From Paracyclopina nana (taxonomy: Eukaryota > Arthropoda > Copepoda > Cyclopoida > Cyclopettidae): a stretch of 64,000 nt of DNA. The notes beneath the pieces were generated by a model. It saw only the letters and a list, made by a program, of their open reading frames with translations, searched no databases and was not told the origin of the DNA. A program made the translations under genes and the position numbers. Below, piece by piece: positions 1 through 38,523 of the stretch; the first letter of the stretch is position 1; every line of letters starts with the position of its first letter. The stretch covers positions 124,001-188,000 of the forward strand of contig JAGUCH010000005.1 of NCBI GenBank assembly GCA_019096065.1, given 5' to 3'.

Positions 1-3000
1 CCTTTGGATTCATTGTCCAGCTCAAATGGAGCTGAATCTTTCATGGCTCTTAGAATAGAGACTGCTGCACAGCTACAGCTAGAAATAACAGAGTTTAACA
101 TAAATGACTACACATTACCAAGGAAAAAAGCAGGCTACATATGTGAAAAAGAAGGTAAGAAGTTACATCACAGCAAAACAATAATTCCAAGAATTATATC
201 CAGAGTTGTGGGGCTGTCCTGAGGGCTACATCATGAATCAAGGTCATTGCTACAAATTGTTCCGCAATGGCATGGACTACATTGATGCTTTGTTTCAATG
301 CCAAGAAGAAAAAGGTGCTCTAGCAACACCTCAAACATTCACCCAAGCAGAGTTTTTAGAGAGCTATGTTAGTCACATGGATAGGGTAGAAAACATTACA
401 GACCAAGAAAAGAAAATATTGCTTGGTTTCCGCTTGGAGGATATTGATGATGGCTCCTACTTCCAAAAACTGGATGGCCATGGACTGGGCACTTATGCTA
501 CCCAAGATGGTGACTGTGTGGTGATGTCTATGGATAGCTCTGGAGTGCACCAAGGATGGGAAAGGCAGCAATGCAACATACCTTCGCCTTTCATCTGCCA
601 ATTGAGTAAGGCATCCCACTTTTCATTAACAATGTACACCTATCATGTCCAATTTTCACCTAGATGAGACATTAAGTACCAAGTTCATACAATATGTCAA
701 GGGACCCACTGCCATCCTGCCACTGAATAAGAACATTGCTGCTAAAAATGTCATTGGCTCAGATGTGGCAACAAAGGTACATAGTGTGGGCTGGGACACA
801 TTATGGGCACCTTCATACCAACTGGGAAGCCCTATGTTTTCAAAAAAGCTTGCTCACTCATCTTACATAACAGCGGACTTGTCTTCAAAGTTAGTAGACC
901 TGAAAGCATTCACCATACTTCTTTGGGTGAGGCCTTCATCAAAAACCCCAGGAGTTGCTTTGGTGAATATGCGAAAAAAGCCTTCTAGAACAACAATTGC
1001 AATTAAATTACTTTCAATTTAGAGTGCCATCCATAATGGTTTCAGCTTTAAGTTACAAATTGGAGAAACTGTAGAAGTCATATACAAGGACAGCTCAACA
1101 GAGGATAGATTTGCAAGCATTGGTAAGAATAATGAAAATAGACAGCAAGGGCACATTTTTAAATCCGATGACTTTCAGATACAAACAAGCTGGCAATCAA
1201 AAAGTGGAACTTTGTTGGAGTGACAATTGATGGTATAACCCATCAAAATACAATTTTTGTCAATGAAGGGTATGGTTTTGATGGAACTAGCCTCAACATC
1301 AATGGACGTTTGAAATTCCACTCACTGAGCACCTATGATTGGATACCAGAAATATTTCAGTCTCCTGTGATCCTTGGATCAGATGAAGCAGCATCATCAC
1401 TTGATCCATTTGATGGATCAATCAGCTGCATTCAATTTTACAACTATGCTTTGGATCCAGCTACAGTTCACCTCAAAAAGTTTTGCCCAGATGTGCCTGG
1501 TGCTAATTCTCACAAACAATGCTTACCTGGTTATGTCTTTTTTGAAGATCACTGCTATAAAATATCTCTAAGCATTTCAACTTTTGCTCAAGCAGAGAGC
1601 TTCTGCATGCCAGACTTGGACAGCTCTTACGAGTCCCAACTCATGTTCACAACAAACCCAAAGCACTGGGACTATGTTGCAAGATTGGTTGAAGATCAAA
1701 TAGGTGCCACATCTTATTGGGCTGGTATATCAGATAGGGATGAAGATGGCTACTTCATCACCAGCCATGGAGAAAACATGACCAGTCTGTCCAACTTCTT
1801 TGCAACTCCTGGAGATCAAGCATCAACTTGTGGAGTTGTAAACAAAGGGACCAATGGCTACCTCACCACTGGGTACTGTTTGGACAAGAAACCTTTTGCA
1901 TGTTCAATGAGGCCCCTCTATGCAAAACCAAACTACCACTGCCCATCTGGTTTTTACCCTTATCGAGGTACATGCCTATACCCAAGCAGAAAATCAGTGT
2001 TTTATGAAGATGCAGTGGTTGAATGCTCCAAAGTGGGCTCCATTTTGCTGCCTGTCAAAGACATTGAGCTCTATGAGTTTCTGAAAATATGGGCCAGTGG
2101 AGAGGTGGGGGCTGACACATGGCTGGGTGTGCGCAAATTCAAGTGGAATCAGTTTTACGATGATGATGGCTCCCTGCCTCAACCCCTCCAGGAAACAATA
2201 ACAACTGACCTCACTTACTCTGATGGATCACCGTTTGACCCTGATACTCAGTTCAATTTTGGGTTAAAAAAGTTTGACACCGATTGCTACTATTTTAAGC
2301 AAAGTGCTGAATTTGAGCTGAGAGGAAGTTCATGCACTAAGGAGCGATCATTTGTTTGCTTGTGGAAAGAATATGACTGTCCAGCCGGTTATTCTTATAT
2401 TGGCCAAATTTCAGATGGCAGAACTTGTCATGGGATACCTTCAAGCGCAACAGACAATTTCTATGATGCCACTTGCCACAGCAACAATGATTACCTAAGA
2501 GAGAGATGGACACCAGAAACACCTTATTTCCTAGACCGATTCAGAAGGCTTCATGCTATGTAAGTAATAAAGTATGGAAGTAGTTGGCATTTCTCATCAT
2601 CATGTTGATTTATTAGGGACATGTCTGTTTGGACAGATGCATCAATGGATCCTCAAGGGGATTGGTTTTACAACTTTGAGTTCAGTATGCTAACTGCTCA
2701 GTTCTCAGACCTGAGGCATGCTGTTGAAGGAACATGGGTGCCTCCCCTATCAATACTAGATGTCAATGGAACAACTGATGGCTGTCTAGAAATCACATCA
2801 AATGGACTGCTCAATACTCGCATCAAATCTGAGTGCGACACAATCCAACCAACTGCTTGCAAATATACTGGTGAGCCTATTACAATGCTAAATAACCGCA
2901 TAATGCTAACATGCTTCTTTCTGCCAGCATGCCTGACAACTCAAGGGAAGAAGTGTCTATTCCCATTCCGCTATCACAATGACTCAAATCCTGACCTAAC

Positions 3001-4740
3001 ATACAAGATTTGCTCATCACTTGATGTCTACAGACCATGGTGTCCCACAAAGCTAGATGCCAATCTCAATGTTTTGGAGTGGGGTGATTGTTTGGAAGAC
3101 TGCCCCAAAGAGCCAGTCATGTCTGTTTGCTTGGAGGAGCCAGAGTTTCCCATCAGCTCTGATGGCAGTGATCATTCTGTTAACTACACCTCAAGCTATG
3201 AAAAGGGGTCAAAAGTTGTCACTGATGAGGTAGCCATGAAACAAAACGCTCTTTTGTAACAAAAGTTTAAACATGTTTTTAGCTGGACTATGTTGCTTTC
3301 ACTTGTCCTTTGGGATATGTATTCCAAGGCACCAATAACATTACTCATTATGCTCTCTGCCATAACTGGGAATTTATCTATTTGTATGACCCAGAAGTTG
3401 TTTGTATTCGTAAGTGCAATTTTTGCTTTTTTAAGCTTTGCAAAATAGTTTTAAACAAATGCTTATCTTGAATCATAGCTGTGGAATGTCCACCTGCTCC
3501 AACCTTTCAGCCTAATACAACTGTGGGTGAAACTACTTGGGATCCAGATACTGATTTGCCAATATATGGAGCAGTGGCTCAATATTCTTGTCCAGAAGGA
3601 TATGTGTTTCAGATTTACCAAGACTTTCCAGACCCAGACATAAACTTTGGCCTTGTAGAAAATGAAACAGCAGTGATCAACATCACTTGTGCAGCATTTG
3701 GAGACTGGAGCCCTAAACAAGTTCCTAAATGCATTCGTAAAATTCAACATACTAATTACACCCCAAATTGAAGGCACTAGATTGACTTTCATTATAGCTA
3801 AAAATTGTACAACACCACCTGTTGCAGTACCAGAGAATGACAGGGGAATGACTAATTGGAATAATGTTAGTCAAAGCTATGGAACCAAGATACGCTATTA
3901 CTGTCCCAAGGTTGGCTGGGGATTTCCATCAAATGGCCAATCTGAGGTTTTCAATGAATGCCAAGCAGATAAGACATGGACACTACAAGAAGTAGAAACA
4001 TGTGTTTGTAAGAGCTTAGAAAAGCCAGCTTTTGCATGAGCTTTAGGGGTTAAACTTTTGACCTGTTCTTCTAGTGCTGCCATGTCCCAAAATGCCACCA
4101 GCCAAGCCTGAAGGTGGATGGTTTTGGTATGGTTTGGAAAATGCTAGATACAAGTGCCCAAATGGATACCAGTTTGAGAAAGGAAATTATCCATATTGGT
4201 ATTCAAACTGCACTGTTGCCAAGACATGGGAGCCTCTAGAAGCCGAGAAATGCATACGTAATTTAGCTAAAATTATTAAATCCAAGTTCCCTTGAATTTC
4301 TCCTTATATAGCTCGCAAATGCATGACAGAGCCTCCAGAGCCATTTTTGGGCATTGACCTGATATGGCCAGCAAAAAATCGAGAACTAGGAAGTGAGATC
4401 ACATATATTTGCCCCTACAGAAAGGGAACCCATTTACAGCAGCTGAAAAGTAAGTTTTTACACCCTCAATGAGGATCTGGATGATGTAAATAGAATGGTC
4501 CTGGTGTAGCTAATTTTCAAAGAATCCTCCAGCATTTTTTTACCAAACTGCTCCAATTCAACCTATAGATCAATATGTCAACTGCATTTGGGATAAGGAC
4601 ACTGATAATATGGTTTGGTGGCCACCTTATATCCAGGAATGTAACAGTAAGCTAATATACTAATTTTGTAAAAGTAATCATGCATTACAGCTAATGATGT
4701 CCTTCTGCATCTACCATCATCACAATCCATCCTTAAATAA
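1..4740 (+). CDS. Gene A, 3' part: secreted lectin/sushi mosaic protein
   Basis: This is the 3' part of the first of three tandem paralogues; the 5' part lies left of the window. The exons encode, in order: the C-terminal part of a C-type lectin-like domain (CTLD, about 1-150), a full CTLD (about 203-603, starting WGCPEGYIMNQGHCYKL), a LamG-like jellyroll (about 660-1506), three CTLDs (about 1512-1912, 1913-2372, 2373-2873), an FN2 module (about 2929-3120, with CLFPFRY and PWC) and five sushi/CCP modules (about 3121-4654). A last small exon adds a tail ending SQSILK and a TAA at 4738-4740. No membrane helix follows the sushi modules, so secretion is inferred. I see no canonical EPN/QPD plus WND sugar-binding set in the CTLDs. 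Nucleotide identity with the same parts of B and C is very high, introns included. The function is unknown; an extracellular adhesive or recognition role is only an inference from the domains. Confidence 0.8.
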
Positions 4741-5520: not shown

Positions 5521-5931
5521 ATGGCAATGGCCAATTTAATTGTGATTTTGAGTATCCTTTGGAGCTCACTTCATCAATTAAAAGCATCACCTAACGTAAG
5601 TACCATAATTTTGGTCAAAATGTTGGGCCATTCATACATCATATTTTACCTTAAAGTTTTCAAAGCGTTATGGAATTTATGACTACACAGATGCAGAGAG
5701 TAAGAATAGTAAGCATATGTATAAATTGAGTAAAAATATTGTCAATTGCAGCTTTGCGCAGAGACAGGTTAATGGAAAATGAAGATGTCAACTTAGGGAC
5801 CTCCCAATATGTCAATGGTATTTTTGAGCCAGAGTGGTTTGTGCATGATGTCATGAACTCTGTTAGCTCTCCATCTGCATACACAGGAGGGCACAATTAT
5901 TTGGCACAGCATTATGGATTTCTGGCAAAAG
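5521..5931 (+). other. Gene B exons 1-3: signal peptide and N-terminal module
   Basis: Exon 1 (5521-5595) encodes the signal peptide and ends at SPN. Exon 2 (5657-5699) encodes FSKRYGIYDYTDAE. Exon 3 (5752-5931) continues TLRRDRLMENEDVN and runs through FEPEWFVHDVMNSVSS. All three have clean GT-AG borders with phases 0, 1 and 1. Gene C has the same three exons at 23590-23658, about 23720-23762 and about 24003-24179. I do not recognise this N-terminal module. Confidence 0.75.
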
Positions 5932-8900
5932 GTTGAAAGTTTTTCTCAGATACTCATACGAAAGAATCCTGATCTTCTGATAGTTAAGTAGTCTCAAAAA
6001 AGAACCCTGGCCAAAATTCCTGCAGCTTGATTCACAATCCTTAATTGCTAGGCTTTCTCCTATTTTGAATTAATAATTGAGTGGACTCATTCTTGAGCCT
6101 AGAAAGTTCCTACAAAAAGCATGAGAGCTCAATGACCAGTGCTAACACAGAAACCAAAAAAAACATATTCTTTTTCATGATGAGCTTTGCATGGCAAGTG
6201 ACTTGAAAAGGCAAAACTTTTGTTTGAAAGAATATACTATGAGCGAACTTGCAGCTTGTTTGCATTTATACAGAAAAATGGTATTGAGGCAAACTGTTGA
6301 AACACTGTAGTAAAATGTTTTGTCTTGTCGATATGATATTGATACCAATAGAACTGTTTTACATATAGGATATTGTTCAATGGGAATGATGACTGCTCCA
6401 TCCGGAAAGAAAGTTTGCTTTGCAAATCGAATCCAAACTGTTCCAAAACCAGATCCTGAAGGGCAAACTGAGTGCCAAGCAAAAGGGTTCACAGGACTTT
6501 TTGAGCCAAGAACAGCAGATGATGTCAAATTTATGCATGAAACTTTCCTATGTAAAACACTGCTTTCTTTTGGTCCTAACTTCATTCTCAAACTGGTTTA
6601 TTCTTGCTGTTTTCATTTATAGATTTAACAGGGTATCCAAAAGCAGGAACTGGTCCAGAGGGCAGGCCTAGTTTGCCTAGTAGAGTCTCAAATTGGGACA
6701 ACAATTACTATTTTTATGTTGGAAGTAAGCTTTACCTTAACTTAATACTTAATATGCAACATTGATCATAATACCAAAATTGCTACAAACAGTATCAGCA
6801 GCCTCTACCAGCTTCAAGCATTTCTGGCTAACTGATCCCAAAGATGCAATTGATAGGTCAATAATCCCACTTTGGAATGGAGTGGCTTGTACTGCACCAA
6901 ATTGTTTTGTATCAATCATGGACTATGCTGATGTAGTGTATACATGGCCTTTTTATGGGAACACAAACTACAAGTTTGTCTGTGAACTGAAAAGTAAAAC
7001 TTACTAGGATCAATTAGTAGCAAAGTAAAGCACTTTTTTTAGCAGCCACACCAGGGAGTCAAGCTGTTGGCAAAGGAATGTTTTATTACCAGAAATCTCC
7101 CTGTGGACTCAATGTATCATTGCCAACAAATTTAAAGCTTGAGGATTTGGATGTGACCACTCCTGGAACCTCTACTGATATAGGATTTGCAAGTAGGAAC
7201 AATGAAAAATCAAATTTTCAGCTCAAGTATCCTAAACAGTCATGTTTAGACTACCTTTTTGGGTGCAGCCTTGTAACTGATGCTACCATTCCAACTCTGA
7301 TTGAAAATGACCTCACCCTGCCCAAAATGGTGAAACTAAAGTATAACTTGATAGCAAAGTAATTCTAGGTAAACTAAATGATTTTCCTCAAAGGAGATCA
7401 CACATCACTTTTCATCATGCTTGTGGGACATCTGACAGTAATGGCCAACCCTGCTCAATGAAACTTATTACACTCAAAGATGGCAATTCATCTGAGATTG
7501 CAGAGATTACAAGGCTGTTCAATAATGGCTCAATGTATAACCTGAAAGCTTGGCCCTGGGAAGACTTGAAGCTGCCAGTGATCCAGCCTGAGTCTAAACT
7601 CCAATTTCTTTCTCGCTTTGACCCAGATTTTGGCTCAGCCAACCTTGACAACATTCATTTCTACACCCCACAAAAGTACAATATATGCTTGCTTATGATA
7701 CAAATATGTAGTTTATAGAGCAATCAATGACTTAGGTGCATGCCAAAATGGTCAATCATGAGAAGGTCAAAATTCAAGAGAGACTCCCAATCCACAGTCA
7801 ATTTATTTCCAGTTGATGTGGAGACCATGCATCTTGCAGGACTCTCTTACAGCCACTTTGATGCAAGATATACTAGCCAATATGCTAACAGGTTTACGGC
7901 AAAAAATATTGAGCATTGTGCTAGGTATATGTTCCTGAAGGTCTTAGAAGTTCTGATCAGCCCAACTGACAAATTTTTGCAGGTTGTGCCTTTTGAGTAG
8001 GTCTTGTGACATGTTTGAGTTCAGTGTTTCTTCAACAACATGCTCATTTTATGCAACTGCTCAGCAAAAATTATCAAATATTCAAGATATCATTGAACCA
8101 ACAGCACCTGGGGAAGATTATAGAATCTACATCCTACATTGCTCAACATCGCTGGAAAATTGGATTGCCAATCCTGACCCATTTACCCATTCCAGAGAGC
8201 GTATGTCAAAAACACCTAGTATCATATGAGCATAAAACAGTTTTTCTAAATAGCTTGGAGCATCAAAAGTACCTGTTCTGACTTTAAAATTGCAGAGAAC
8301 AAAGGCTTCTCCCACAGTAATAGACACTCTATCAATTCAGGCTATCAGTATACATCATACATTGCCTGTGATCAAGGTATGCCATCCACGCTTTGGAATC
8401 AACTCCCATCTCAAACATAAAATTGTTTAGGACAAAGATTTCAGATGGAGCAAGTCATAACTGAGTGGCCATATGGAATAGACAAGGCCTATTTTACTTT
8501 GGTAAAGCCCCAAGGGGTGTTACGGTACTGGATGAAATCAAAATCTGGCAGAAACAAGAAAATTTTCAAGCTGGAAGTATCAGTGGCTTTTGTCCAAGGG
8601 ACAACAGAAAATGCTAAAGCTGGATCTCAAGAAGATATTGATGAGGGATCAATTGCATATGGATCTACGAAAGAAAGAATAATCAGGCTACCAGATCTTT
8701 CATCATTTGACTTTGACAAAATTATGTAACGCTTCTTTTTATGCCTATGGCTTCTTAGCTAACAACCTTTTTTCATTTTGATCATCTAGAGTCACAGTAG
8801 ACCTCCAAAATCCTGATAATGATGGGACATCCTTATATTTGGGTCCGTTTGATGTCCTAATAGATGTACCATTTGATGCAGGCTGCTATAAAGTTCTGTC

Positions 8901-11900
8901 AGGCTTATCAGGCAAAATTTCAGATGAAGCTGATGCGATAACACCTGCTTGGTGCATAACCAAGTGCCTGCAATCAAGTGACACAAAAAGATTTGCATGT
9001 GAGTAAAACTCCTACATTCCTAGTTTCTTATTTAATACTGTATTTGTTAGTGCTTCAAAATGGGATGGATTGTTTTTGCTACGAAAATTTGCCTTTGGCT
9101 CAACTGCAGTTGGTACCACCAGAAAATGAGACTGTATCCTGCTCAATTGGATGTAAGGGAACAAACAATTCATATCTTTGTGGTGGTCCTTCAGCTGTCT
9201 CAGTCTACATAGGAAGTAATTTATTTTGGGTTCCTTTTGAAATGTGCCAAAACTAAGAGAGACATATTTTAGAATGTCCTAGCAATCAAAAAAGATTTGG
9301 AGACAGTTGTTTTGAACAGCTAACTTTGCCTTCAGCATCTTTGTATGCTAATGCGGATGAATGTTTGGAAAGAGGTGGCCTCCTATGGTACCCGGAAACA
9401 AGCCTTGAATTGGAGTTTGTAACTCAGACATATCCAATACCATCTGGCAGCATTTATCATATTGGATACAAAAATTTTTCAAAGAATATGGGCATGACAT
9501 TTTTGGATGGCTCTCAAAGTCCAGGCATACCAGGATTTACGCGTAATATTCATATTCTTTTTTCATAGTCACTAATAGTTATTTATTTCGAGCTGGGGCA
9601 CGTAAAGTAGGGTCATTAAATAGCTGAGCGAGGATTTTAAAATGGGAAAACTCGAGTACAGCTTTACTAGCCCGAGCCTGTGAGGGCTGTAATTGTACGT
9701 GAAGAACTTAGAACTTAAAAGAAAATTTTCAAATTTCATGGTCACTTATAGTTATTTATATACTGTTATATACTGTAATATGATTTCCGCGTGTTATAAT
9801 TCAGTTTACCGATCCGACTCAGCTCTTTTATATCACAGTTCTTTCTAAGCAATTTGGGGGTTATTAAGTACTTAACAGCCCTTGAATCAAATTTGAGGGA
9901 TTTTAAGTAATTTAATGCCCCTCATATTCAAGGAAGTAATGCAAACTCCTAAGAAGTAGCATAAAAGAAAGAATCATTCACGTGTTGAACCTTAGAAAGT
10001 TGGAGTTGCATTCCAATGCTCTATACCCTGAGCTATGGAAACATCATAAAGATTGGATGCTATGTACAGGACTTTAACCATAACTTAAGCCAGATAAAGA
10101 AATAAAAAAAGTTAAGGAATGACTGGGTTTTGAACCCTAGACTGCTGAATTAAGAGCCCAGTGCTCTAACCATTGTGCCATAGGAGCACAACTGCAAAAA
10201 TTAATTTTTAAAGTCTAGTTTATTGCTCCCAAACCACAGGATGCTAGCACATGAGAGCCAGTGAAGCAACTAAAAACCGAGCAGCATTTTCAAGGGCACG
10301 GGCCAGCCCGGTAACTTCATTAAAACACTCAAAAATCATATTACATGATATAAAATTGCATATTTTGAGCTAGGGCACGTAAAATTGGGTCATTAAATAG
10401 CTGACCCTACTTTACGTGCCCCAGCTTGAAATAAATAACTATAATTTTAATTTCCCCCAAATTGCTTAGAAAGAACTGATATAAAAGAGCTGAGTTGGAT
10501 AAGTAAACTGAATTATAACACGAGGAAATCGTATTACAGTATATAAAATACTAAGATTTCTTGAAATTAAAGTTTGTATTTTCTTTTAAATAGCTAATAA
10601 ACAGGCTGTACATAATTAGAATATTTACATTGAAAGCAAGCTGACAATGATTTGAAAAAGCAGATCATGAAATACAAAATAAATAGTCATAGTTATGTAA
10701 GGGATAATTTTAAGCTATCACTGAAAAATAAATACCCATCAATAGAAATGCATAAAAAAAACCCAAGCTTTAAATACAAATCAAATAGCAATTACACTTT
10801 ACCACATCAATTATGAAAAGTATGTGCCCTCTTGCAGAGAAACAACTAGACAATGCAGATACTTTTGGGCCAGGACCAATTGAGGACTTAATGAGCCCAA
10901 CATCATGCATCACACTTGATCCAGAAAAGGAAAACGACAAAGCTTTCACTCATGAAAATAAGATCTGCCCAGATGGAAAAGGAATTTGCAAGTTCAGGCT
11001 CAGTGAGATGATGTCTTTAAATAGCTACTGTTCAAGACCAAATAATTAATTTTCTATTTTTCAGTTTCTTCACATGAACCAATAAAAAATAATGTGGACT
11101 ATTTGACTGTTAGCAGTGCAAAAGATGAAAATCCAACAGACTTTAATGGTGAAGGAACAGTCAGGATAAAACTTCTACCAGATGTTTTTGTGGCCAAAAG
11201 ATTTATTGAAATTACTTTTTCCTCCCAAATAGTAATTTCAGGCCTCAAGTTTGAAATGCCAGACAGCAAAGCTCTAAGGAAATTTACTTTGCTTGTCGAG
11301 GAAGCAGGAATATCATATCCTGACACATTCACCCATTGGGGGGTAAATGATACATAGTAATCTAACCACTTGAAATGAGCATTACATATTTTTAGGTGCA
11401 CACTCTTAATTATGGAAACTTACCTTTGCCTGCTACACCAAAAGTGCTGAAGAGACTTGCCCACTTTCAACCAATAGCTGCTGATAGAATAAGACTTGAA
11501 GTTGAAGATGGAGCCAATGAAATTGACTTAAAAATTGAAATACTTGGTATTCCTAATCGAAAAGTTCATGGAATGAATCCAATTCAAGAGCCAATCAACT
11601 ATGAGACAAGTAATGATTTCTGATCTTTCACTATGTTTAGCCTATAAACAATCTTTTGTTTTGTCTGATTAATTAATGAGTAGCCAAATTGCAGATGTTG
11701 GCAAAACAAGAGATCAAATTTTTAAGTTAACTATGCAGCTAATTTCAAAAAAATTGAAAGTTGTATGCTTTTCTAGTTTTTCTAGCTAATGCTAGACAAA
11801 ATTAGGGTTTTTTTAGTTTTGAACAAGAACAAACTCATGCTAATAATTGGGATTGAGTAAATATGATTTGAGACATAATCTGCATTCAGGTATTCAAAGT

Positions 11901-22005: not shown

Positions 22006-22102
22006 ACCCATAGAACTAATTAAGTAGCAGTGCCCCACTTCTTTTTCATAAATTCAACTCTCTTTATGAGTCAAACAATTTAAAGCATGGTAAATACGAA
22101 TT

Positions 22103-23527: not shown

Positions 23528-23535
23528 TATTTAAA
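23528..23535 (+). promoter_or_regulatory. Possible TATA box of gene C
   Basis: The sequence TATTTAAA lies 55 bp upstream of the start codon at 23590, a spacing that would give a short 5' leader of roughly 25-30 bases. It is a plausible but unproven TATA box. Confidence 0.4.
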
Positions 23536-23589
23536 GATCAACTCCCTTTGTGTGACTCAATCAGTTAGGAATTGGATGGAGACACTACC

Positions 23590-26500: not shown

Positions 26501-29500
26501 CTCCTAGAATTACATCTTTTTCCAGGACAAAGATTTTTAATGGAACAAGTGATAACTGAGTGGCCTTACATGATTGACAAAGACTATATTTCAGTTGTGA
26601 AACCTCTAGGAGTCTTCAGATACTGGTTAAGATCACCTTCAGCAAGAAAAAGCAACTTCAAGTTGGAAATTTCTGCTGCTTTCCTGCAAGGGACCACAGA
26701 AAATGCTAAAATTGGAAACCAGGAAGATATGATAGAATCAACAATAGAGGACAAAAAAATGGTGGAACTAACATATAGGTTACCAGATTTGTCGACATTT
26801 GACTTCGACAAAATTATGTGAGCAACTGATAATCAAAATATTATAATTTAATTAAGACATCCTTTTAAAGAGTGACAGTAGACCTTCAAAATCCTGAAAG
26901 TGATGCAGCAGCATTCATGTTGGGTCCATTTGAGGTTTTAATTGATGTCCCATTTGATGCTGGATGCTATAAAGTTTTGTCATCATTATCAGGGCAAATT
27001 GCAGATGACTCCGAGATTATCACACCCTCATGGTGCATCACTAAATGCCTTCAATCTAGTGACTCCAAAATATTTGCATGTAAGTGGACAATGCTAATAT
27101 TCTTCTAGGGTAGCTCTAAATCATTTTAAACTATTAAATAATTCAGTACTTAAAAATGGCATGGAATGCTACTGCTATGAAAATCTACCGTTGCATCAGC
27201 TGCAATTGGTCCCAGCTGAAAATGAAACTGAATCATGCTCAATTGGTTGCAAAGGTACAAACAACTCCTATCTATGTGGTGGTCCTTCTGCTGTCTCAGT
27301 CTACATAGGAAGTAATTATTACTGACTACCTTTCTAAAGTAACACAGCTGGTAAAAAATATCTTAGAATGTCCTGGAAGTCAAAAAAGGTTTGGAGACAG
27401 TTGCTTTGAAGAGCTACCTTTGCCTTCAGCATCTTTGTATGCAAATGCAGATGAATGCATGGAAAAAGGTGGTCTCCTTTGGTACCCGGAAACAAGCCTG
27501 GAATTGGCCTTTGTTGCTCAGACATTTCCAATACCATCTGGCAGTATCTACAACATTGGATACAAAAACTTTTCCAAAGATTGGGGAATTACATTTTTAG
27601 ACGGCTCAACTAGTCCAGGGATTGCAGGATACACCCGTAATTTTCACAATGATTATAGGATATCTTAGCACAATGCATAATAATTTCCAGAGGTGCAAGC
27701 AAATGGCAAAGACACTTTTGGACCAGGACCAATAGAAGATTTGATGAGTTCAACATCCTGCATTACATATAACCCTGAGGTAGCAGATTCGCAAAGTAGA
27801 TTCACCCATGAGAAAATAAGCTGTCCAGAAGGCAAAGGAGTTTGCAAATTCAAACTAAGTAAAAAATTGCATGTTACAAGATTCTGGACATCCCACAGAA
27901 AGAGGAGCAAAAAGTGTACATATGCAAACCAACTTTTAACTTTGACCAACTAATACAGACCCAATACCAAATGGCATTACAGGCAAGGACCATGGCCAAA
28001 AAGCTTCCCAGCTCAGCCTTCAAATCACACTTATTTGGTATGACTATCAATAGCTTGTTCTCATAAACATTTCTATAAGGTAAGCAAGGCACTTTGCGCG
28101 CTTATATCTCAGCATCTACTCGTCCGATTGGAACCAAAATTGGAGGAATTCATAAGGATATATTGAAGAATCTTCATGTCAATTTTCATCCGGATCGGAG
28201 GACGCTAAGGCCGCCTTACTGAAAGTGAGGCAAATCAGTTAAGCAAGGGAGAAAAATCAGCCACCCCCTTAGAGACCTCCGATCCGGATGAAAATTGGCA
28301 TGAAGATTCTTCAATATGCTCTTATGAATCCCTCCAAATTTGGTTCCAATCGGCTCAGTACTTACTGAGTTATGAGCTTCCAAAGTGCCTTGCTTTGCTT
28401 ACTGCCTGCCTTACTGAGTTTTATGAGAACAAGCTAATGTCAAAATTCACTTAGCCTAAACTATGCTGCAGTAGGCATATGAATTTTTTATTAAGGATTT
28501 TTGACATGTAGGCTTCATTGCTAAGACTTTCTACACGAGTATTATTTGGACTTAAACAATTCCAGACTTTTCACAGTATTCCCGTTGGTCATGGTTCTGA
28601 TATGACATTTTGGTTGGTCTATGGTCCTGTTTGCCTAACTTGATTGTTTAGAGTTTAGGGCCCTCAAAGCTTTTTGCTCCACTTATGCTAGGATGCCTTG
28701 AAAGCTAAACTACAGCATAATTCAAATTGTGTTTAGTCACTCCTCATGAACCCTTGGAAAACAATGTGGATTACACAACATTGAGCAGCACAAAAGAAGA
28801 GAATCCAACTGATTTTGGAGGAGATGGATCAATAAGAGTGAAGCTTTTGCCGGATGCTTTCACAACAAAAAGATTTATTGAGATTACTTTTTCATCCCAA
28901 ATTCTTCTGTCAGGCATTAAGTTTGAAATGACAGACACCAATGCTTTGAAAAAATTTACTTTACTTGTTGAAGAAGCAGGAATAGCATATCCTGATAGGT
29001 TTACCCACTGGGGAGTTAGTTCATTTAAAAAGTAACATAGCTGGTGCAAAATATGAAGAACTTAATTTCTAGGTCCATCAGCTACATTATGGTCCATTGA
29101 CTACAACAGGAACACCCAAAATATTGAAGAGATTTGCTCATTTCCAACCAATTATGGCAGATAGAATAAGGATTGAGATAGAGGATGGAGCGAATGAGAT
29201 TGACCTAAAAATTGAAATTCTGGGAGTACCAAATCAGAAAGTGCATGCAATGAACCCAATTCAAGAAACTATAAACTATGAGACAAGTAACCAAACTTTC
29301 CACTTAAAAAGCAAAAAAAAAATTTGTAGCCAAATTGTCACATCATTTTGCCAGCCTACTATTCAACAAGCAATAAAAACTTGGAAGATGTCATTTCCAA
29401 CTATGGCCTGTGTCCTATGGGATCAATCAAAATAAGCAGCCACCCTACAGTTGATGGTGCCAAAACATCATGTAAGTAATAAAGAAGCATTGTTTCAATG

Positions 29501-32500
29501 TGGTTGCAATATGGTTTCTCTTCTTTTATTGAAGATGTCGCGTTTACTCTTTACCTTACAAATACAAAGACACCTGAATACACTTGGGGGCTAAAATTTA
29601 GCTTCAACCCGTTTGTTTTATCAGAAGTTGATGCTACTGGCTTAATAGAATTAGCCACATTTACAAGTGCTCCTCAGCTTGAGTCCGGATTCACTGCTGA
29701 GTTTGAAATATTCTGTGCATCAGACTCCATGAAAATCTACATCAATGGAGAATTCATAGCAAGCTCAAGCACATTTCATCTGGCTACAGGAGATATACCT
29801 GTTATAAAAAAGCTGAAGCTATTCAACAATAACATCAATTCATTTGTTCCTTTTGCCTCAATGACAACATCTTATTGTAAGAGTTGATTTATAAAACATG
29901 GCAGGGATTGAAATCAAGAAATTGACTTTTTATCTAGTTCCTCCTTTTGGGATCTTAGATGTTTTCAAGCAAGTCCAAAATCCCAGCCCAGCAATGAGAC
30001 CAGAACCATTAATTTTTGGCAGCTATGGGTACCCTGGAGCTATGAAAAAAAACTTTGCTCTTCTAAGCCTGTATGAAAAAGGAGTAGCTCCATCACAAAA
30101 TGAAACTGTGTATGTCCCAGCACAAGCAGTTCAACACTGCTTCATGTGAGTATAACTGCATGTTAGCCCTTTCTCATATTTTTCTAGCTAGGCTCCTATA
30201 ATGTTAAGCAAGGCTCTTTGGAGGCGCATATCTCAACAACTACAGAGCCAATCAGCACCTTACTTGGTAGGATTTGCCAGAAGATCCTAATAATTGTTAA
30301 TACAAAAATTCATCCTGATTGAAGGCTGATTAGAGGAGGCCTTTTTTGTTATAAATGTTAAGCTGCCTTGCTTCGTATTTTAAGCGGCCTCGGATCTCAA
30401 CCAAATTTGGCATACAGTCGTAGATAGCATCAATGAAGAATCCTGCCAAGTTTGATTCCAATCAGCTCAGCATTTGCTCAGTTATTTGTTTCCAAAAAAA
30501 ATTTGTTTCCTTGCTTAACACCATAGAGCTTTGCTTAACTAATATGAGAACGGGCTATTATCTATGATAAACTAGATTCACTTCAATGATCATTTAGTAA
30601 TCAACATGGGGGAATTCAGTGCAAAATGCATCAAGCAATTTACAACAAAGATTACCTAGTTTCTGGATTAGGGGGCACACAAGGATGGAAATATGCTGTG
30701 CAATGCAGGGCTGGTTTTATTGCAGTAGGCAAGGTGTGCTTAGTATTTCCAGTAGGAAGTGAACAAGTATTTGCCAAAGCATCCTTGGATTGCTCAGATC
30801 AAGGAGCAACACTTTATGCACCAACTGACCAAACTCAAAATACCATCATGGCTGGATCAATGAAGAAATGGGTAAGTTAATTTCTAATGTAAAAGAAGTA
30901 AAAGAGGAAAAGTAACGAAAAAAATTAGGGAATAGATGAAATGTGGATTGATTTAAGAAGGGAGAATGGTGCTTGGAAATCAAAAGGGAAAACTCTGAAT
31001 GGTTTTCAGTTGGATTGGGGTACTGGAGAGCCAAGAAATACAACAGGATTAGATTGTGCCATAATATCAAAATCTGCAGGCTTTGCAATGAAAGCTGAGA
31101 ATTGCAAAGCTCCCAAAAAGTATTTTTGTATGGCTGTGAAACCAGATTGCCCACAAGGATTTGCATGGCTACCATCCTACAACCAAGGAAGATCATGTTT
31201 TAAGATTGCTGGTCCAACTTTCAATGAATTCAATGCAGCCAACAAAAAGTGTCTGAAAGAAAAGACTCGATTAGCTACACCAATGACAGCCACTGACTTA
31301 CAAGCTCTAAGTCAGTGGATTCCATCAAGTGGATCATTGGCATCTAATGGTGGAAAATATGCTGATGTCATTGCCGACTTTTCCCTTGGGATGTTCCAGA
31401 CAATAAATGCAAATCAAAAGTTTCTTTTTGTAGACAGGTTAACAACAACACAATAACAGCAGTCAGCAGACTGATTCTAATTTCATAATACTTATTTCAG
31501 GTCAGCCATCATTGACTGGGCAAACTTCACAGCACTATGGTCAACCTCCAACACATATTATGCTAAAATAGTGCTCAACTATGGCCTGAGTCCATCTTAT
31601 GGGAGCTACAGCAGATCTACTTCATACACATCAAGCCAAGCTATCTGTGAATACACTGAGTGCTCCACCGTTGCTGGTACCAATTGCAGGTACCCATTCA
31701 AATACAAGGGAAGGATGTATGATACTTGCATCACCATTGATGGAAAAGGCACTGCATCAGGAACACCATGGTGCAGTACAGCAATAGACGAGCTACAAAA
31801 CAGTATTGCTGGGAGTGAGCAAACTTGTACACCAACTTGCCAAAGGATCACTAACTGTCCAGTGGGGTTTTTGCCTATGTATCCTGACAATACTTGCTAC
31901 CAAGACTCATCTTCAACCACATTTGATGTGGTTCAGTCATTTACTGCTGCTGAGGCAAAATGCGCTGAGCAAGGAGCAAGGCTCTTCAAAATTAGATCAA
32001 CAGCTTCAATTGAGCATTTGAAGAAAACCAGGGCAGAGTATTTTGTCAATTCAGATTACATTCCAGCACAGACCAATTCAATGGTTGCAATAGACTTAAA
32101 ATTCATGAAATTGGATGCAGATGCATCAAGAAAGCTCTATTACAGGTGCAATAATTTTGTTATCAATACCAAACATTCATTAAGCAATTTTGTTTTTCTT
32201 CTAAGTGACATGAGTCCAGTTGACCCTCAACTTGCAAAGCTACTTGTTTGGAAAACTGGATACCCAGTGGATGATCCTACTTTTACATGCATTGCATTAT
32301 TCAAGCTAGAGCTTATAAATGTGCCCTGTGGTGATGAAAACTATTACTTTGGCAATGTGGTCAATGCAGTAGACACTCCAACACTGGGATATTTGTGTGA
32401 GGCAAGAGTGAATAAGGCTATCAATTCACCAGAATCATGCTCCTTCCCATTCATTTACCAAGGAGAAAAGTTCACTAGCTGTGCCTTAAAAACAGTTCCT

Positions 32501-35500
32501 GGGTTCAATCCTGCAGGGAAACCCTGGTGTGCAACTCTGACCGACCAAAACTCCCTTGTGGTTCCAGGAAAATGGATTCTATGTGAAGATGAAAGGGAAA
32601 TAATATATGATGGAGATGGAGCCGGTTACCAATGTCCAATGCCTTTCATCTTCAACAGAATCTACTTTGATTACTGCACAAAGTTGAAGCCCTCTGGAGC
32701 TGTTGGGTTTGCTCAAGATTACTGGTGTCCAGACCCAAAATCTGTGGGAATCAACAATGTTTACACTACTTCACAACCAGTAGGAAAATGCACTGAATTT
32801 CTGCATCCTCCAGGTAATAAGTGCAAAAAAGAAGTCAACTGTTTCTACTTTGAGCACACAAAAAATTGCAGAAAATGGATGTGCTGAGTTGTATGAGCCA
32901 ATATCTGATAAGATTTGTGTAAGAACCTCGTCTTACAAAGAAACATATGAAGCAGCACAAGCCAAATGCAAATCTGAGGGTGGATTTCTTCTCTATGACA
33001 TTAATGCCATCATCCATGTAAGGACAGTTCATGTAGAGTAATGCTTCGGTGTTATTCAAATCTCTTATTCTACAGAGTGGCCTAGAGGCTTTACTCAGAG
33101 AAAAGTATGTCAAGTATGCAAGATTCAAGGATGCTACAGGATTCTGGATGGATGCAGACTTTTCAGCAACATCAAGGTGGAAGTGGAGAAACCATCCCCA
33201 GGCCTTTAAAGGTTGGTCAAAATATCAGATAAAGACCAAACTATAAAGGCTTTATCCTTTCAACAGAATTCACAAGATGGGATGGCGGAATTGAGGAAAT
33301 TGGTTGCAGTCCTTCAGCTGGGTGCAGTGAAACAGATGGTATTTTGTTTAGTGCCTTTTATGATGCTGCAAAAGATAAAGTGGCTGGGTCATGGATTGCA
33401 AAAGACAAGTTTTTAGAGCAACCATATGTTTGCATGGCCAAATGCCCAAGATACTACACTTGGTTCCCAAGTATGATCAATTCACTCAATATTATTCCCT
33501 TAAATAGCATTGCATTTCTAAAGATGCAGGCAAGTGCTTGAAAGTAGTGAATGTTAAGGAAAGCAAAACAATTGGAGATGCAATGGTTCAATGCAGCATA
33601 GATAATGGCAGACTTGTATCACTGAAATCTTGTGCCACCATCAAAGCCTTGATGGATGAGCTTTTGCTACTTAAGGGACTTGTCAATCAAACATACTTCT
33701 TTGGTACCTTTGCATTCAAAAGTGGCAAGGGTTCCTCGTACAGAAATTGGGAAGACAGCTCCATCATTGATGCGTAAAGAAATACTCATCATCCTATTCA
33801 GTTTCTGATTTCTTTGCTTTTCATAGCCTTGGAAATGGAGTTTTTGATCTGGAACCATCAGGTGGCTCACTCTGCAACTTTGGCCCCTTGGATTCATTGT
33901 CTACCTCAAATGGAGCTGAATCTTTCATGGCTCTTAGAATAGAGACTGCTGCACAGCTACAGCTAGAAATCACAGAGTTTAACATAAATGACTACACATT
34001 ACCAAGGAAAAAAGCAGGCTACATATGTGAAAAAGAAGGTAAGAAGTTACATCACAGCGAAACAATAATTCCAAGAATTATATCCAGAGTTGTGGGGCTG
34101 TCCTGAGGGCTACATCATGAATCAAGGTCATTGCTACAAATTGTTCCGCAATGGCATGGACTACATTGATGCTTTGTTTCAATGCCAAGAAGACAAAGGT
34201 GTTCTAGCAACGCCTCAAACATTCACCCAAGCAGAGTTTTTAGAGAGCTATGTTAGTCACATGGATAGGGTGGAAAACATTACAGACCAAGAAAAGAAAA
34301 TATTGCTTGGTTTCCGCTTGGAGGATATTGATGATGGCTCCTACTTCCAAAAACTGGATGGCCATGGACTGGGCACTTATGCTACCCAAGATGGTGACTG
34401 TGTGGTGATGTCTATGGATAGCTCTGGAGTGCACCAAGGATGGGAAAGGCAGCAATGCAACATACCTTCGCCTTTCATCTGCCAATTGAGTAAGGCATCC
34501 CACTTTTCATTAACAATGTACACCTATCATGTCCAATTTTCACCTAGATGAGACATTAAGTACCAAGTTCATACCATATGTCAAGGGACCCACTGCCATC
34601 TTGCCACTAAATAAGAACATTGCTGCTAAAAATGTCATTGGCTCAGATGTGGCAACAAAGGTACAGAATGTGGGCTGGGACACATTATGGGCACCTTCAT
34701 ATCAACTGGGAAGCCCTATGTTTTCAAAAAAGCTTGCTCACTCATCTTACATAACAGCGGACTTGTCTTCAAAGTTAGCAGACCTGAAAGCATTCACCAT
34801 ACTTCTTTGGGTGAGGCCTTCATCAAAAACCCCAGGAGTTGCTTTGGTGAATATGCGAAACAAGCCTTCTAGAACAACAATTGCAATTGAATTACTTTCA
34901 ATTTAGAGTGCCACCCATAATGGTTTCAGCTTTAAGTTACAAATTGGAGAAACTGTAGAAGTCATATACAAGGACAGCTTAACAGAGGATAGATTTGCAA
35001 GCATTGGTAAGAATAATGAAAATAGACAGCAAGGGCACATTTTTAAACCCGATGACTTTCAGATGCAAACAAGCTGGCAATCAAAAAGTGGAACTTTGTT
35101 GGAGTGACAATTGATGCTACATCCCATCAAAATACAATTTTTGTCAATGAAGGATATGGTTTTGACGGAACTAGCATCAACATCAATGGACGATTGAAAT
35201 TCCACTCACTGAGCACCTATGATTGGATACCAGAAATATTTCAGTCTCCTGTGATCCTTGGATCAGATGAAGCAGCATCATCACTTGATCCATTTGATGG
35301 ATCAATTAGCTGCATCCAATTTTACAACTATGCTTTGGATCCAGCTACAGTTCACCTCAAAAAGTTTTGCCCAGATGTGCCTGGTGCTAATTCTCACAAA
35401 CAATGCTTACCTGGTTATGTCTTTTTTCAAGATCAGTGCTATAAAGTATCTCTAAGCATTTCAACTTTTGCTCAAGCAGAGAGCTTCTGCATGCCAGACT

Positions 35501-38500
35501 TGGACAGCTCTTACGAGTCCCAACTCATGTTCACTACAAACCCAAAGCACTGGGACTATGTTGCAAGATTGGTTGAAGATCAAATAGGTGCCACATCTTA
35601 TTGGGCTGGTATATCAGATAGGGATGAAGATGGCTACTTCATCACCAGCCATGGAGAAAACATGACCAGTCTGTCCAACTTCTTTGCAACTCCTGGAGAT
35701 CAAGCATCAACTTGCGGAGTTGTAAACAAAGGCACCAATGGCTACCTCACCACTGGGTACTGTATGGACAAGAAACCTTTTGTATGTTCAATGAGGCCCC
35801 TCTATGCAAAACCAGACTACCACTGCCCATCTGGTTTTTACCCTTATCGAGGTACATGCCTATACCCAAGCAGAAAATCAGTGTTTTATGAAGATGCAGT
35901 GGTTGAATGCTCAAAAGTGGGCTCCATTTTGCTGCCTGTCAAAGACATTGAGCTCTATGAATTTCTGAAAATATGGGCCAGTGGAGAGGTGGGGGCTGAC
36001 ACATGGCTGGGTGTGCGCAAATTCAAGTGGAATCAGTTTTACGATGATGATGGCTCCCTGCCTCAACCCCTCCAGGAAACAATAACAACTGACCTCACTT
36101 ACTCTGATGGATCACCGTTTGACCCTGATACTCAGTTCAATTTTGGGTTGAAAAAGTTTGACACTGATTGCTACTATTTTAAGCAAAGTGCTGAATTTGA
36201 GCTGAGAGGAAGTTCATGCACTAAGGAGCGATCATTTGTTTGCTTGTGGAAAGAATATGACTGTCCAGCCGGTTATTCTTATATTGGCCAAATTTCAGAT
36301 GGCAGAACTTGTCATGGGATACCTTCAAGCGCAACAGACAATTTCTATGATGCCACTTGCCACAGCAACAATGATTACCTAAGAGAGAGATGGACACCAG
36401 AAACACCTTATTTCCTAGACCGATTCAGAAGGCTTCATGCCATGTAAGTAATAAAGTATAGCAGTAGTTCACATTTCTCATTATCATGTTGATTTCATAG
36501 GGACAAATCCGTTTGGACAGATGCATCAATGGATCCTCAAGGGGATTGGTTTTACAACTTTGAATTCAGTATGCTAACTGCTCAGTTCTCTGATATGAGG
36601 CATGCTGTTGAAGGAACATGGGTGCCTCCCCTATCAATACTAGATGTCAATGGAACAACTGATGGCTGTCTAGAAATCACATCAAATGGACTGCTCAATA
36701 CTCGCATCAAATCTGAGTGCAACACAATTCAACCAACTGCTTGCAAATATACTGGTGAGCCTATTACAATGCTAAATAACCACATAATGCTAACATGCTT
36801 CTTTCTTCCAGCTTGTCTGACAACTCAAGGGAAGAAGTGTCTATTCCCATTCCGCTATCACAATGACTCAAATCCTGACTTAACATATAAGATTTGCTCA
36901 TCACTTGATGTCTACAGACCATGGTGTCCCACAAAGCTAGATGCCAATCTCAATGTTTTGGAGTGGGGTGATTGTTTGGAAGATTGCCCCAAAGAGCCAG
37001 TCATGTCTGTTTGCTTGGAGGAGCCAGAGTTTCCCATCAGCTCTGATGGCAGTGATCATTCTGTTAACTACACCTCAAGCTATGAAAAGGGGTCAAAAAT
37101 TGTCACTGATGAGGTAGCCATGAAACAAAACACTACTTTGTAACAAAAGTTTAAACATGTTTTTAGCTGGACTATGTTGCCTTCACTTGTCCTTTGGGAT
37201 ATGTATTCCAAGGCACCAATAACATTACTCATTATGCTCTCTGCCACAACTGGGAATTCATCTATTTGTATGACCCAGAAGTTGTTTGTGTTCGTAAGTG
37301 CAATTTTTGCTTTTTCAGCTTTGCAAAATAGTTTTAAACACATGCTCATCTTGAATCATAGCTGTGGAATGTCCACCTGCTCCAACCTTTCAGCCTAATA
37401 CAACTGTGGGTGAAACTACTTGGGATGCAGATACTGATTTGCCAATATATGGAGCAGTGGCTCAATATTCTTGTCCAGAAGGATATGTGTTTCAGATTTA
37501 CCAAGACTTTCCAGATCCAGACATAAACTTTGGCCTTGTAGAAAATGAAACAGCAGTGATCAACATCACTTGTGCAGCATTTGGAGACTGGAGCCCTAAA
37601 CAAGTTCCTAAATGCATTCGTAAAATTCAACATACTAATTACACTTTAAATTGAAGGCACTAGATTGACTTTCATTATAGCTAAAAATTGTACAACACCA
37701 CCTGTTGCAGTACCAGAGAATGACAGGGGAATGTCTAATTGGAATAATGTTAGTCAAAGCTATGGAACCAAGATAAGCTATTACTGTCCCAAAAATGGCT
37801 GGGGATTTCCATCAAATGGCCAGTCTGAGGTTTTCAATGAATGCCAAGCAGATAAAACTTGGACACTAGAAGAAGTAGAAACTTGTGTTTGTGAGAACTT
37901 AGAAAAGCCAACTTTTGGATGAGCTTTAGGGGTTAAACTTTTGACCTGTTTTTCTAGTGCTGCCATGTCCCAAGATGCCACCAGCCAAGCCTGAAGGTGG
38001 GTGGTTTTGGTATGGTTTGGAAAATGCTAGATACAAGTGCCCAAATGGATACCAGTTTGAGAAAGGAAATTACCCATATTGGTATTCAAACTGCACTGTT
38101 GCCAAGACATGGGAGCCTCTAGAAGCTGAGAAATGCATATGTAATTTAGCTAAAACTATTAAAGCCTAGCTCCCTTGAATTTCTCATTACATAGCTCGCA
38201 AATGTGTGACAGAGCCTCCAGAGCCATTTTTGGGCATTGACTTGATATGGCCAAACAAGAATCGTCAATTAGGTAGCATGCTCACTTATGTTTGCCCCTA
38301 CAGAAAAGGAACCCATTTGCAGCAACTGAAAAGTAAGCCTGAAGTATTCTCTGCCAATATGTTGAGATCAAAATATGACATATATCAACCCATAGATCAA
38401 TATGTCCATTGCAAATGGGACAAGGACACTGATAATATGGTTTGGTGGCCTCCCTACATTGAAGAATGTAACAGTAAGTTCATATCATTTTTCCACAAAA

Positions 38501-38523
38501 TGTATGCATCAGTTGCAGCTTAA
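23590..38523 (+). CDS. Gene C: giant secreted mosaic protein, paralogue of gene B
   Basis: This is the third paralogue, complete and with the same module order as gene B. The ATG at 23590 opens a signal peptide (MVNVGFILAILCSSAHQSL). Modules: CTLD-1 (about 24246-25086), unassigned module (25140-25785), PAN (25827-26298), WSC (26873-27314), CTLD-2 (27363-27858), F5/8C-like (28733-29250), galectin-like (29535-29879), CTLD-3 and -4 (30600-31675), FN2, CTLD-5, FN2, FN2 (31667-32812), CTLD-6 to -8 (32871-34490), LamG-like (34550-35392), CTLD-9 to -11 (35396-36755), FN2 (36811-37005), five CCPs (37006-38473). The last exon starts at 38519 and meets TAA at 38521, so it lacks the 13-14-residue tail of A and B. 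Two related TA-flanked MITEs sit in introns. The 5' half is clearly diverged from B; the 3' half is almost identical. Secreted, function unknown. Confidence 0.82.
28053..28434. mobile_element. Palindromic MITE with TA target duplication
   Basis: The outer ends are inverted repeats GCTTGTTCTCATAAA / TTTATGAGAACAAGC, each flanked by TA. Inside, arms of about 120 bp (28083-28200 and about 28285-28402) are imperfect inverted repeats with CATCCGGATCGGAGG at their inner ends. TA duplication and size suit a Tc1/mariner-type MITE. It lies in an intron of gene C before the F5/8C-like module; gene B lacks it there. Confidence 0.75.
30166..30555. mobile_element. Second MITE of the same family, more degenerate
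   Basis: The ends GCCCTTTCTCATA and TATGAGAACGGGC are inverted and flanked by TA. Inner segments (AAGCAAGGCTCTTTGGAGG at the left, TTGCTTAAC at the right) correspond to the element at 28053-28434. Its length (390 bp) is almost the same. It sits in the intron of gene C before CTLD-3; the matching intron of gene B has no such insert. Confidence 0.7.

What the first reader, a model, noticed from the sequence alone, without database searches (positions are those of the whole stretch)
1..38523. Tandem array of three giant secreted proteins with an unusual domain mix
Three head-to-tail genes each combine about eleven C-type lectin-like domains with FN2, PAN, WSC, F5/8C-like, galectin-like, LamG-like and five sushi modules in one chain of about 3,000 residues. 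I know no described family with this order. Nearly all modules belong to fold classes that bind glycans or extracellular matrix, so this could be a lineage-specific recognition, adhesive or secreted-matrix system. Most CTLDs lack the EPN/QPD and WND calcium motifs, so the binding mode may be protein-directed.
Basis: partly seen in the sequence, partly recalled or inferred. Interest (0 to 1): 0.85.

Follow-up and report, generated by a model that had tools for sequence, protein, structure and literature searches.

The report
Giant secreted lectin-like gene array
An arthropod chromosome carries a row of very large genes for proteins, probably secreted, built from sugar- and matrix-binding modules; the second part of three neighbouring genes has been copied back and forth until nearly identical, while their first part has drifted far apart.

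Summary
Spliced models give three intact 45-exon genes coding for 3,596, 3,596 and 3,579 residues, with identical intron phases. Gene 1 starts 10.3 kb before the window; a diverged fourth copy lies further upstream; two near-full-length relatives and a degenerate 3' piece lie elsewhere in the genome. Pfam supports PAN, WSC, LamG, FN2, CTLD and sushi modules. Galectin is weak, F5/8C unsupported, two modules match nothing, and 8 of 11 CTLDs have support. No CTLD pairs EPN/QPD with WND. The N-terminus is signal-like; no C-terminal anchor shows.

New here: between genes 1-3 synonymous divergence is 1.0-1.6 over the first 1,480 alignment columns but 0.05-0.07 afterwards. Introns inside a ~7.4 kb block are mostly 88-100% identical, before it 44-77%. 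Site patterns in the block are patchy. This is recurrent interlocus gene conversion of the second part of the gene, with both parts under purifying selection (omega 0.14-0.23). The genome is an arthropod's, perhaps a copepod's. I found no described protein with this module order in the open papers and PDB sequences searched. Function (secreted matrix or coat versus recognition) is inferred.

The parts
1..4740 (+). Gene 1 (g1), 3' part with its stop codon; the gene starts at -10317 (C5:113,683) outside the window; 3,596 aa, 45 exons
   Evidence: Spliced open frame
5521..20966 (+). Gene 2 (g2), complete: 45 exons, 3,596 aa, signal-like start MAMANLIVILSILWSSLHQLKASPN
23590..38523 (+). Gene 3 (g3), complete: 45 exons, 3,579 aa; stop codon ends at 38523
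5931..7044 (+). g2 module 1, CTLD by eye only
   Evidence: No Pfam, PDB or profile support
7045..7673 (+). g2 module B, 173 aa, unassigned; 43-69% identical to g2 in g0, g1, g3, g4
7674..8142 (+). g2 PAN module
   Evidence: Pfam PAN_1 2.6e-6, 27.6 bits, cut-off 21.4
8143..8874 (+). g2 module D, 187 aa, unassigned
8875..9214 (+). g2 WSC module
   Evidence: Pfam WSC 1.2e-9, 38.6 bits, cut-off 27.8
9215..11001 (+). g2 CTLD2 (weak support; contains a 1.3 kb intron)
   Evidence: Profile match to CTLD10 only, 47-71%
   Evidence: no match
11609..12546 (+). g2 galectin-like module (weak)
   Evidence: Gal-bind_lectin E 0.013, 3 of 5 members, 15.4 bits against cut-off 22.1
13108..16892 (+). g2 CTLD3, CTLD4, FN2a, CTLD5, FN2b, FN2c, CTLD6, CTLD7, CTLD8
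   Evidence: Pfam, PDB and profile matches; coordinates
16893..17804 (+). g2 LamG module
   Evidence: Laminin_G_3 2.1e-14
17805..19403 (+). g2 CTLD9, CTLD10, CTLD11 and FN2d
   Evidence: Lectin_C 7.2e-10 and 1.1e-4; CTLD11 weak; FN2d by profile, 97-98% with FN2a and FN2b
19404..20867 (+). g2 five sushi-like modules
   Evidence: Sushi 9e-5 for the whole piece, best stretch in one module; module-to-module profiles range from 86% to 1%
13085..20567 (+). Homogenised block in g2 (CTLD3 to sushi 4): at least 92% identical to g1 in 30 of 30 windows of 250 columns, at least 94% to g3 in the 28 windows from about 13578 on
1..4280 (+). Part of the g1 homogenised block (about -3203 to 4280) inside the window
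31166..38163 (+). g3 homogenised block (transition from about 30922)

Best explanation
The array is an old tandem family of about 400 kDa, probably secreted, mosaic proteins in an arthropod genome. Shown from sequence: intact single-chain gene models, a fixed module order, purifying selection, and repeated interlocus gene conversion that keeps the part from CTLD3 to sushi 4 (about 58% of the protein) nearly identical in g1-g3, while the N-terminal head (module 1, B, PAN, D, WSC, CTLD2, F5/8C-like, galectin-like) and the extreme C-terminal tip keep separate, old identities. Inferred: the protein is a multivalent extracellular scaffold. The shared CTLD/FN2/LamG/sushi tail attaches to a common matrix, secretion or partner through contacts that do not use the classical sugar-type calcium site, and each paralogue's head presents a different, conserved binding surface. 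A coat or gland secretion on the body surface, or an extracellular matrix, is my first guess for the site. Probabilities: gene family and conversion about 0.9; shared-tail/distinct-head division of labour about 0.4; surface or matrix role about 0.35.
For: Three 45-exon models with no internal stop and the same 44 intron phases. dS/dN: g1-g2 1.283/0.201 before column 1480 and 0.052/0.012 after; g1-g3 1.017/0.161 and 0.072/0.012; g2-g3 1.608/0.225 and 0.057/0.008. In 250-column genomic windows, identity left of the block is at most 0.90 (short overlaps apart) and mostly 0.5-0.8; it rises to 0.92-1.00 within one window (g1-g2) or two (g3) and falls again on the right inside the gene. In the inner block 153 informative sites change pattern 63 times against a shuffled mean of 98.7, with 0 of 5,000 shuffles as low, as expected from several separate conversion events. 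g0 and g4 are 39-84% identical to g2 across the block modules, so the identity is not forced by selection on the sequence itself. Secretion: hydrophobic N-termini of 2.02, 1.51 and 1.40 on the Kyte-Doolittle scale and no C-terminal window among the four best. FN2 is the most expanded domain in a copepod, the salmon louse, and LsFNII1-3 there are made by tegumental glands, with lubrication, anti-fouling or fuzzy-coat roles proposed (PMC7201535, passages read).
Against: No transcript or protein data; splice sites are predicted (6 of 132 introns are GC-AG), and the predictor was trained partly on exons of these same genes. In g3 an internal segment (1.54, start of CTLD3) is more hydrophobic than the N-terminus (1.40). 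Role, tissue and ligands are unknown. The shared-tail/distinct-head division is not needed to explain the pattern: conversion may be a by-product of tandem arrangement. Low omega in the head speaks against a fast-diversifying recognition surface. For the salmon louse FN2 proteins, host immune modulation has also been suggested, so the analogy does not point to a coat alone. An assembly error cannot be fully excluded, although each copy has private differences (92, 59 and 152 of 309 variable sites) and its own flanks. The one structure model was useless (mean pLDDT 30).
Confidence: 0.6

Rival explanations
1. Secreted immune recognition protein: the CTLD, WSC, galectin-like and sushi modules bind microbes, and tandem copies plus conversion provide a repertoire.
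For: CTLDs and galectins are common in invertebrate recognition (general knowledge); tandem copies with diverged N-terminal heads.
Against: Purifying selection in the head: omega 0.14-0.16 overall and 0.07-0.29 in 200-column windows up to column 1400, two saturated windows left out; no paired sugar-type calcium motifs; only four tandem copies.
Confidence: 0.25
2. Reproductive or embryonic coat, or egg-sac/spermatophore adhesive, made by a gland.
For: Giant, probably secreted mosaic chain with many matrix-type modules.
Against: Nothing in the sequence points to it; expression unknown.
Confidence: 0.2
3. The near-identity of the second part reflects one recent segmental duplication, not recurrent conversion.
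For: Low dS of 0.05-0.07 across the block.
Against: The block is internal to old genes with diverged flanks on both sides, intergenic windows are only about 50-60% alike, and site patterns are patchy; g1-g2 and g3 have different left boundaries.
Confidence: 0.05
4. Assembly artefact: reads of one copy were used to fill the block of the others.
For: A stretch of at least 500 bp (g2 14500-14999) has no difference between the three copies.
Against: 309 variable sites among 7,474 gap-free columns, with private sites in every copy.
Confidence: 0.05
5. The models join several adjacent small genes.
For: No RNA evidence; modules often end at introns, and 28 of 44 introns are of phase 1.
Against: One frame, one start with a signal-like segment and one stop per copy, identical intron phases, and much the same colinear order in g4 and in g5 on another contig.
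Confidence: 0.04

Closest known systems
Mannose receptor family (MRC1, PLA2R, DEC-205, Endo180; definition recalled)
   Same: FN2 together with many CTLDs in one long extracellular chain.
   Different: No ricin-type N-terminal domain found, four FN2 interleaved with CTLDs instead of one before them, added PAN, WSC, LamG and sushi, no membrane anchor seen at the C-terminus.
Lecticans such as aggrecan (definition recalled)
   Same: CTLDs and sushi in one chain; CTLD8 matches the aggrecan CTLD (1tdq, E 1.4e-6).
   Different: No Link match, many more CTLDs; a glycosaminoglycan region was not examined.
FN2-domain tegumental gland proteins of the salmon louse (LsFNII1-3; PMC7201535, passages)
   Same: Arthropod, gland-secreted, FN2 modules; also a copepod if the genome here is one.
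   Different: No CTLD/PAN/WSC/LamG mosaic is mentioned in the passages read; this genome has 38 fn2 matches against over 200 copies reported there.
Variable/constant exon clusters such as protocadherins and UGT1 (PMC1885805, PMC4151104, PMC3325998: listing with start of abstract; the splicing scheme partly recalled)
   Same: Tandem array in which one part of the product is shared and another part differs.
   Different: There a common set of downstream exons serves many variable first exons; here every gene has its own complete copy, kept alike by conversion.

Membership tests
Mannose receptor family | One FN2 followed by 8-10 CTLDs (recalled) | tested here: not met
   FN2 interleaved: CTLD4-FN2a-CTLD5-FN2b-FN2c-CTLD6 and FN2d after CTLD11
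Mannose receptor family | N-terminal ricin-type domain | tested here: not met
   No such Pfam match at E <= 0.5 in 16 pieces covering the g2 model, bar 21 residues at the start of CTLD2 that were added later
Mannose receptor family | Membrane anchor near the C-terminus | tested here: not met
   Of the four best 19-residue hydropathy windows printed per copy none is C-terminal; outside the N-terminus the highest is 1.54; no dedicated program was run
Lecticans | Link modules | tested here: not met
   No Link match at E <= 0.5
Lecticans | Glycosaminoglycan attachment region | not tested
   Not examined
Selectins | CTLD-EGF-sushi-membrane anchor | tested here: not met
   No EGF over its cut-off (one sub-threshold EGF_Tme5, 13.8 against 22 bits); no C-terminal anchor seen
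Calcium-dependent sugar-binding CTLDs | EPN or QPD plus WND in one CTLD | tested here: not met
   No pair in the CTLD modules of six copies; isolated single motifs only, e.g. WND in g0 CTLD6, EPN in g0 CTLD7
CTLD fold | Lectin_C profile match in each of the 11 modules | tested here: inconclusive
   5 of 11 over cut-off, 3 by profile comparison, 2 weak, 1 none; structure model failed
F5/8 type C (discoidin) domain | F5_F8_type_C profile match | tested here: not met
   0 of 6 members match any Pfam family at E <= 1, 0 PDB hits; a distant fold relation remains possible
Galectin domain | Gal-bind_lectin over cut-off | tested here: inconclusive
   3 of 5 members match weakly, best 15.4 bits against 22.1
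Concerted evolution by gene conversion | Internal tract far more alike than flanks, introns included, with patchy sites | tested here: met

The most novel reading that the evidence does not exclude
A variable-head, common-tail binding system. Each tandem gene keeps an old, private, constrained head, while conversion holds the tail identical so that every head is displayed on the same scaffold. Because intron phases are the same in g1, g2 and g3, a head from one gene could even be spliced in frame to the tail of the next.
Probability: 0.15. Interest if true: 0.75.

Novelty: new variant of a known kind. Interest (0 to 1): 0.45.

Why it matters
It adds a mosaic of CTLD, FN2, PAN, WSC, LamG and sushi modules that I could not find described, and it gives a clean natural case of half-gene concerted evolution: the second part of a 3,600-residue chain is homogenised among neighbours and the first part is not, with boundaries that can be placed within one or two exons. 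If heads and tails have separate jobs, the conversion boundary marks the functional joint and predicts which modules bind shared and which bind distinct partners.

Tried and rejected
Structure prediction of the longest single exon (17469-18845, aligned with g1, g3 and g0) gave mean pLDDT 30 and was not used; no fold search was run. GC-biased conversion: the tail is richer in GC than the head in g1-g3, but about equally so in the non-converted g0, so no signature. Organism by rRNA: the Rfam search failed twice; no mitochondrial cox1 was found. No tRNA and no Rfam match at gathering score in the window. The CTLD reference set contained one wrong-strand row (L007) and was repeated without it; of the eight CTLD loci, four were used in the end. 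dS and intron identities were computed before a 63-base extension of exon 16 was found, so 'intron 15' of that table is partly coding; introns longer than 600 bases were not compared, and two pair-windows with saturated dS are given as nan. Automatic models of g0, g4 and g5 are unreliable in their first 200-280 residues; no curated start was made for them. Automatic g0 models ran into retroelement sequence and those exons were discarded.
Full report
WHERE IT IS. The window is contig C5:124001-188000 of a 91.95 Mb assembly in 10 contigs. C5 begins with CCTAA repeats, i.e. TTAGG telomere on the other strand, and the genome has 80 matches (E <= 0.001, 85 candidates scored) to the arthropod cuticle family Chitin_bind_4, so it is an arthropod. 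It also has 38 matches to the LNR (Notch) family with only 150 of 437 first-look candidates scored. [quoted passage not shown] PMC8301441, passages read). A copepod is therefore my guess, but this is inference; rRNA and cox1 searches gave nothing.

GENE MODELS. No annotation or RNA was available. I wrote a splice-aware predictor, trained on long open frames of the region including some of these genes, and a protein-guided aligner, then checked exon borders by hand. Genes 1, 2 and 3 each have 45 exons and 44 introns, one open frame, and the same string of intron phases (28 of phase 1, 9 of phase 2, 7 of phase 0). Lengths are 3,596, 3,596 and 3,579 residues. Of 132 introns, 126 are GT-AG and 6 GC-AG. 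One border was settled because other copies disproved a reading: a 57-base intron that is open in g2 has stops in g1 and g3. Gene 1 begins 10.3 kb before the window; gene 3 ends at 38523.

RELATIVES IN THE SAME GENOME. A diverged copy, g0, lies upstream. Matches to the N-terminal exons (-45783 to -45111) are separated from the rest (from about -34385) by about 10.7 kb holding a retroelement with reverse transcriptase and RNase H. A dispersed near-full-length copy, g4, is on the minus strand of C5 at about 3.6887-3.7022 Mb, and a more distant one, g5, on C7 at about 3.082-3.095 Mb. A 3' fragment close to g5 lies on C4 near 5.063-5.064 Mb, with one stop and one frame break in its homologous part; two further frame marks fall in the upstream stretch that does not resemble the family. 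In g0, g4 and g5 the modules from B to sushi 5 align colinearly with g2 at 31-84%, 34-82% and 20-55% identity. The aligner can only report colinear matches, and for g5 the modules B, PAN, D, F5/8C-like, galectin-like and linker reach just 20-29%, so their presence there is not independently shown. The first 200-280 residues of these three copies are not reliably modelled.

MODULES. Over Pfam cut-offs in g2: PAN_1 (27.6 bits), WSC (38.6), fn2 in FN2a and FN2b (28.9, 30.8), Laminin_G_3 (54.4), Lectin_C in CTLD3, 6, 8, 9, 10 (23.3-40.0), Sushi (23.2). FN2c and FN2d join the FN2 set by profile comparison (FN2c 93% with FN2b, 67% with FN2a and 46% with FN2d; FN2d 97-98% with FN2a and FN2b). CTLD5 has 15.9 Pfam bits, 92% against a reference of four CTLDs from elsewhere in the genome, and PDB rows to NKG2-D. 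CTLD4 and CTLD7 reach 84-93% with three other CTLDs of the chain each but only 25% and 0.3% against the reference. CTLD2 and CTLD11 are weak, CTLD1 unsupported. As a control, 16 non-CTLD modules compared with CTLD5, 8 and 9 gave at most about 10%. Galectin is below cut-off. The F5/8C-like module and modules B and D have no meaningful match; chance-level rows (nucleophosmin, a galactosaminidase) were not used. A below-cut-off Pfam row of the LamG module to a bacterial neurotoxin binding domain (18.4 against 23.8 bits) I take as a cross-match between concanavalin-like folds without functional meaning. No CTLD module in six copies has both EPN/QPD and WND; isolated motifs occur, e.g. WND in g0 CTLD6 and EPN in g0 CTLD7.

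THE SECOND PART OF EACH GENE IS HOMOGENISED. On codon alignments, dS before column 1480 is 1.28 (g1-g2), 1.02 (g1-g3) and 1.61 (g2-g3); after it, 0.052, 0.072 and 0.057. dN/dS is 0.14-0.16 before and 0.15-0.23 after. Among introns compared, numbers 1-22 are 44-77% identical (intron 15, at 75-77%, proved partly coding), numbers 25-41 88-100%, numbers 42-44 50-89%; introns 23-24 are near-identical only between g1 and g2. On a three-way genomic alignment in 250-column windows the block runs in g2 from about 13085 to 20567, from the edge of CTLD3 to the end of sushi 4: g1-g2 is 0.92-1.00 in 30 of 30 windows; g3 joins about 500 bases later and is 0.94-1.00 to both in 28 of 28. Of 7,474 gap-free block columns 309 vary: 92 with g1 odd, 59 g2, 152 g3, 6 all different. 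Over the whole block 303 informative sites change pattern 107 times, and in the inner part (g2 14000-20290) 153 sites 63 times against a shuffled mean of 98.7; in both cases none of 5,000 shuffles is as low. One duplication followed by even mutation would not give this; repeated conversion does. g0 and g4, at 39-84% identity in the same modules, show that the sequence itself is free to change.

FUNCTION. From sequence: a hydrophobic N-terminus in each copy (2.02, 1.51, 1.40 on the Kyte-Doolittle scale; in g3 one internal segment is higher, 1.54), no C-terminal segment among the four most hydrophobic, 130-132 cysteines, 23-25 sequons, constraint on both parts. Inferred: an extracellular multivalent scaffold whose contacts do not use the classical sugar-type calcium site. 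The conversion boundary suggests that tails must stay compatible with one common partner or with each other, whereas heads do different, conserved jobs; alternatively conversion is a neutral outcome of tandem arrangement. For the site of action I lean to a surface coat, gland secretion or matrix, because FN2 proteins are expanded in the salmon louse and LsFNII1-3 are made in tegumental glands; roles proposed there are lubrication, anti-fouling, fuzzy coat and also host immune modulation (PMC7201535, passages). This is an analogy, not evidence about these genes.

NOVELTY. A PDB sequence search with 1,102 central residues found 33 distinct sequences; the best stretches cover one module or, for fibronectin, two adjacent FN2. 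Literature searches for WSC/PAN/C-type lectin/fibronectin type II (2 of 2 papers listed), for C-type lectin with fibronectin type II and copepod (2 of 2), for six module and taxon terms (10 of 11 listed), and for gene conversion with C-type lectin in arthropods (10 of 13 listed) showed no title or abstract start that describes such a protein. Only passages of two papers were read (PMC7201535, PMC8301441). The library holds open-licence papers only, and no protein database of eukaryotes was available, so an annotated but unpublished or differently named relative may well exist.

CHANGES ON CHECKING.

Noticed in passing
C5:189918-192362 (L016:1918-4362, minus; about 1.9 kb beyond the window end) and C5:198586-207715 (L017:586-9715, plus): Major vault protein (Vault repeats, MVP_shoulder) lies about 6 kb from a TEP1-like gene (TROVE, DUF4062, NACHT and WD40 over cut-off; TEP1 propeller model below its cut-off): two vault-particle genes side by side.
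   Followed up: partly
upstream of the window, about -44 to -36 kb (L010-L012): A retroelement with reverse transcriptase and RNase H open frames on the minus strand sits between the N-terminal exons and the rest of paralogue g0.
   Followed up: partly
window 44384-45565: Two adjacent open frames that look alike by eye (histidine-rich GHTH/GHGH stretches), reminiscent of tail-collar-like proteins; no Pfam match at 0.01.
   Followed up: partly
window 47803-48307, 55258-55568, 63008-63486: Tandem repeats of 123 bp (4.1 copies, 97%), units of 18, 54 and 71 bp in a stretch with GC skew +0.22 (54-56 kb), and 160 bp (3 copies).
   Followed up: no
g1, g2, g3 introns: Six of 132 introns are GC-AG, and they differ between paralogues at the same site, e.g. 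GT in g2 but GC in g1 and g3 after the exon ending LPKMVKLK.
   Followed up: partly
C1:6,013,368-6,020,601: Another dense cluster of CTLD matches in the genome, some with better Lectin_C scores than any in the window.
   Followed up: no
genome-wide: LNR (Notch repeat) matches are abundant: 38 at E <= 0.001 with only 150 of 437 candidates scored; an LNR burst is reported for Oithona nana.
   Followed up: partly
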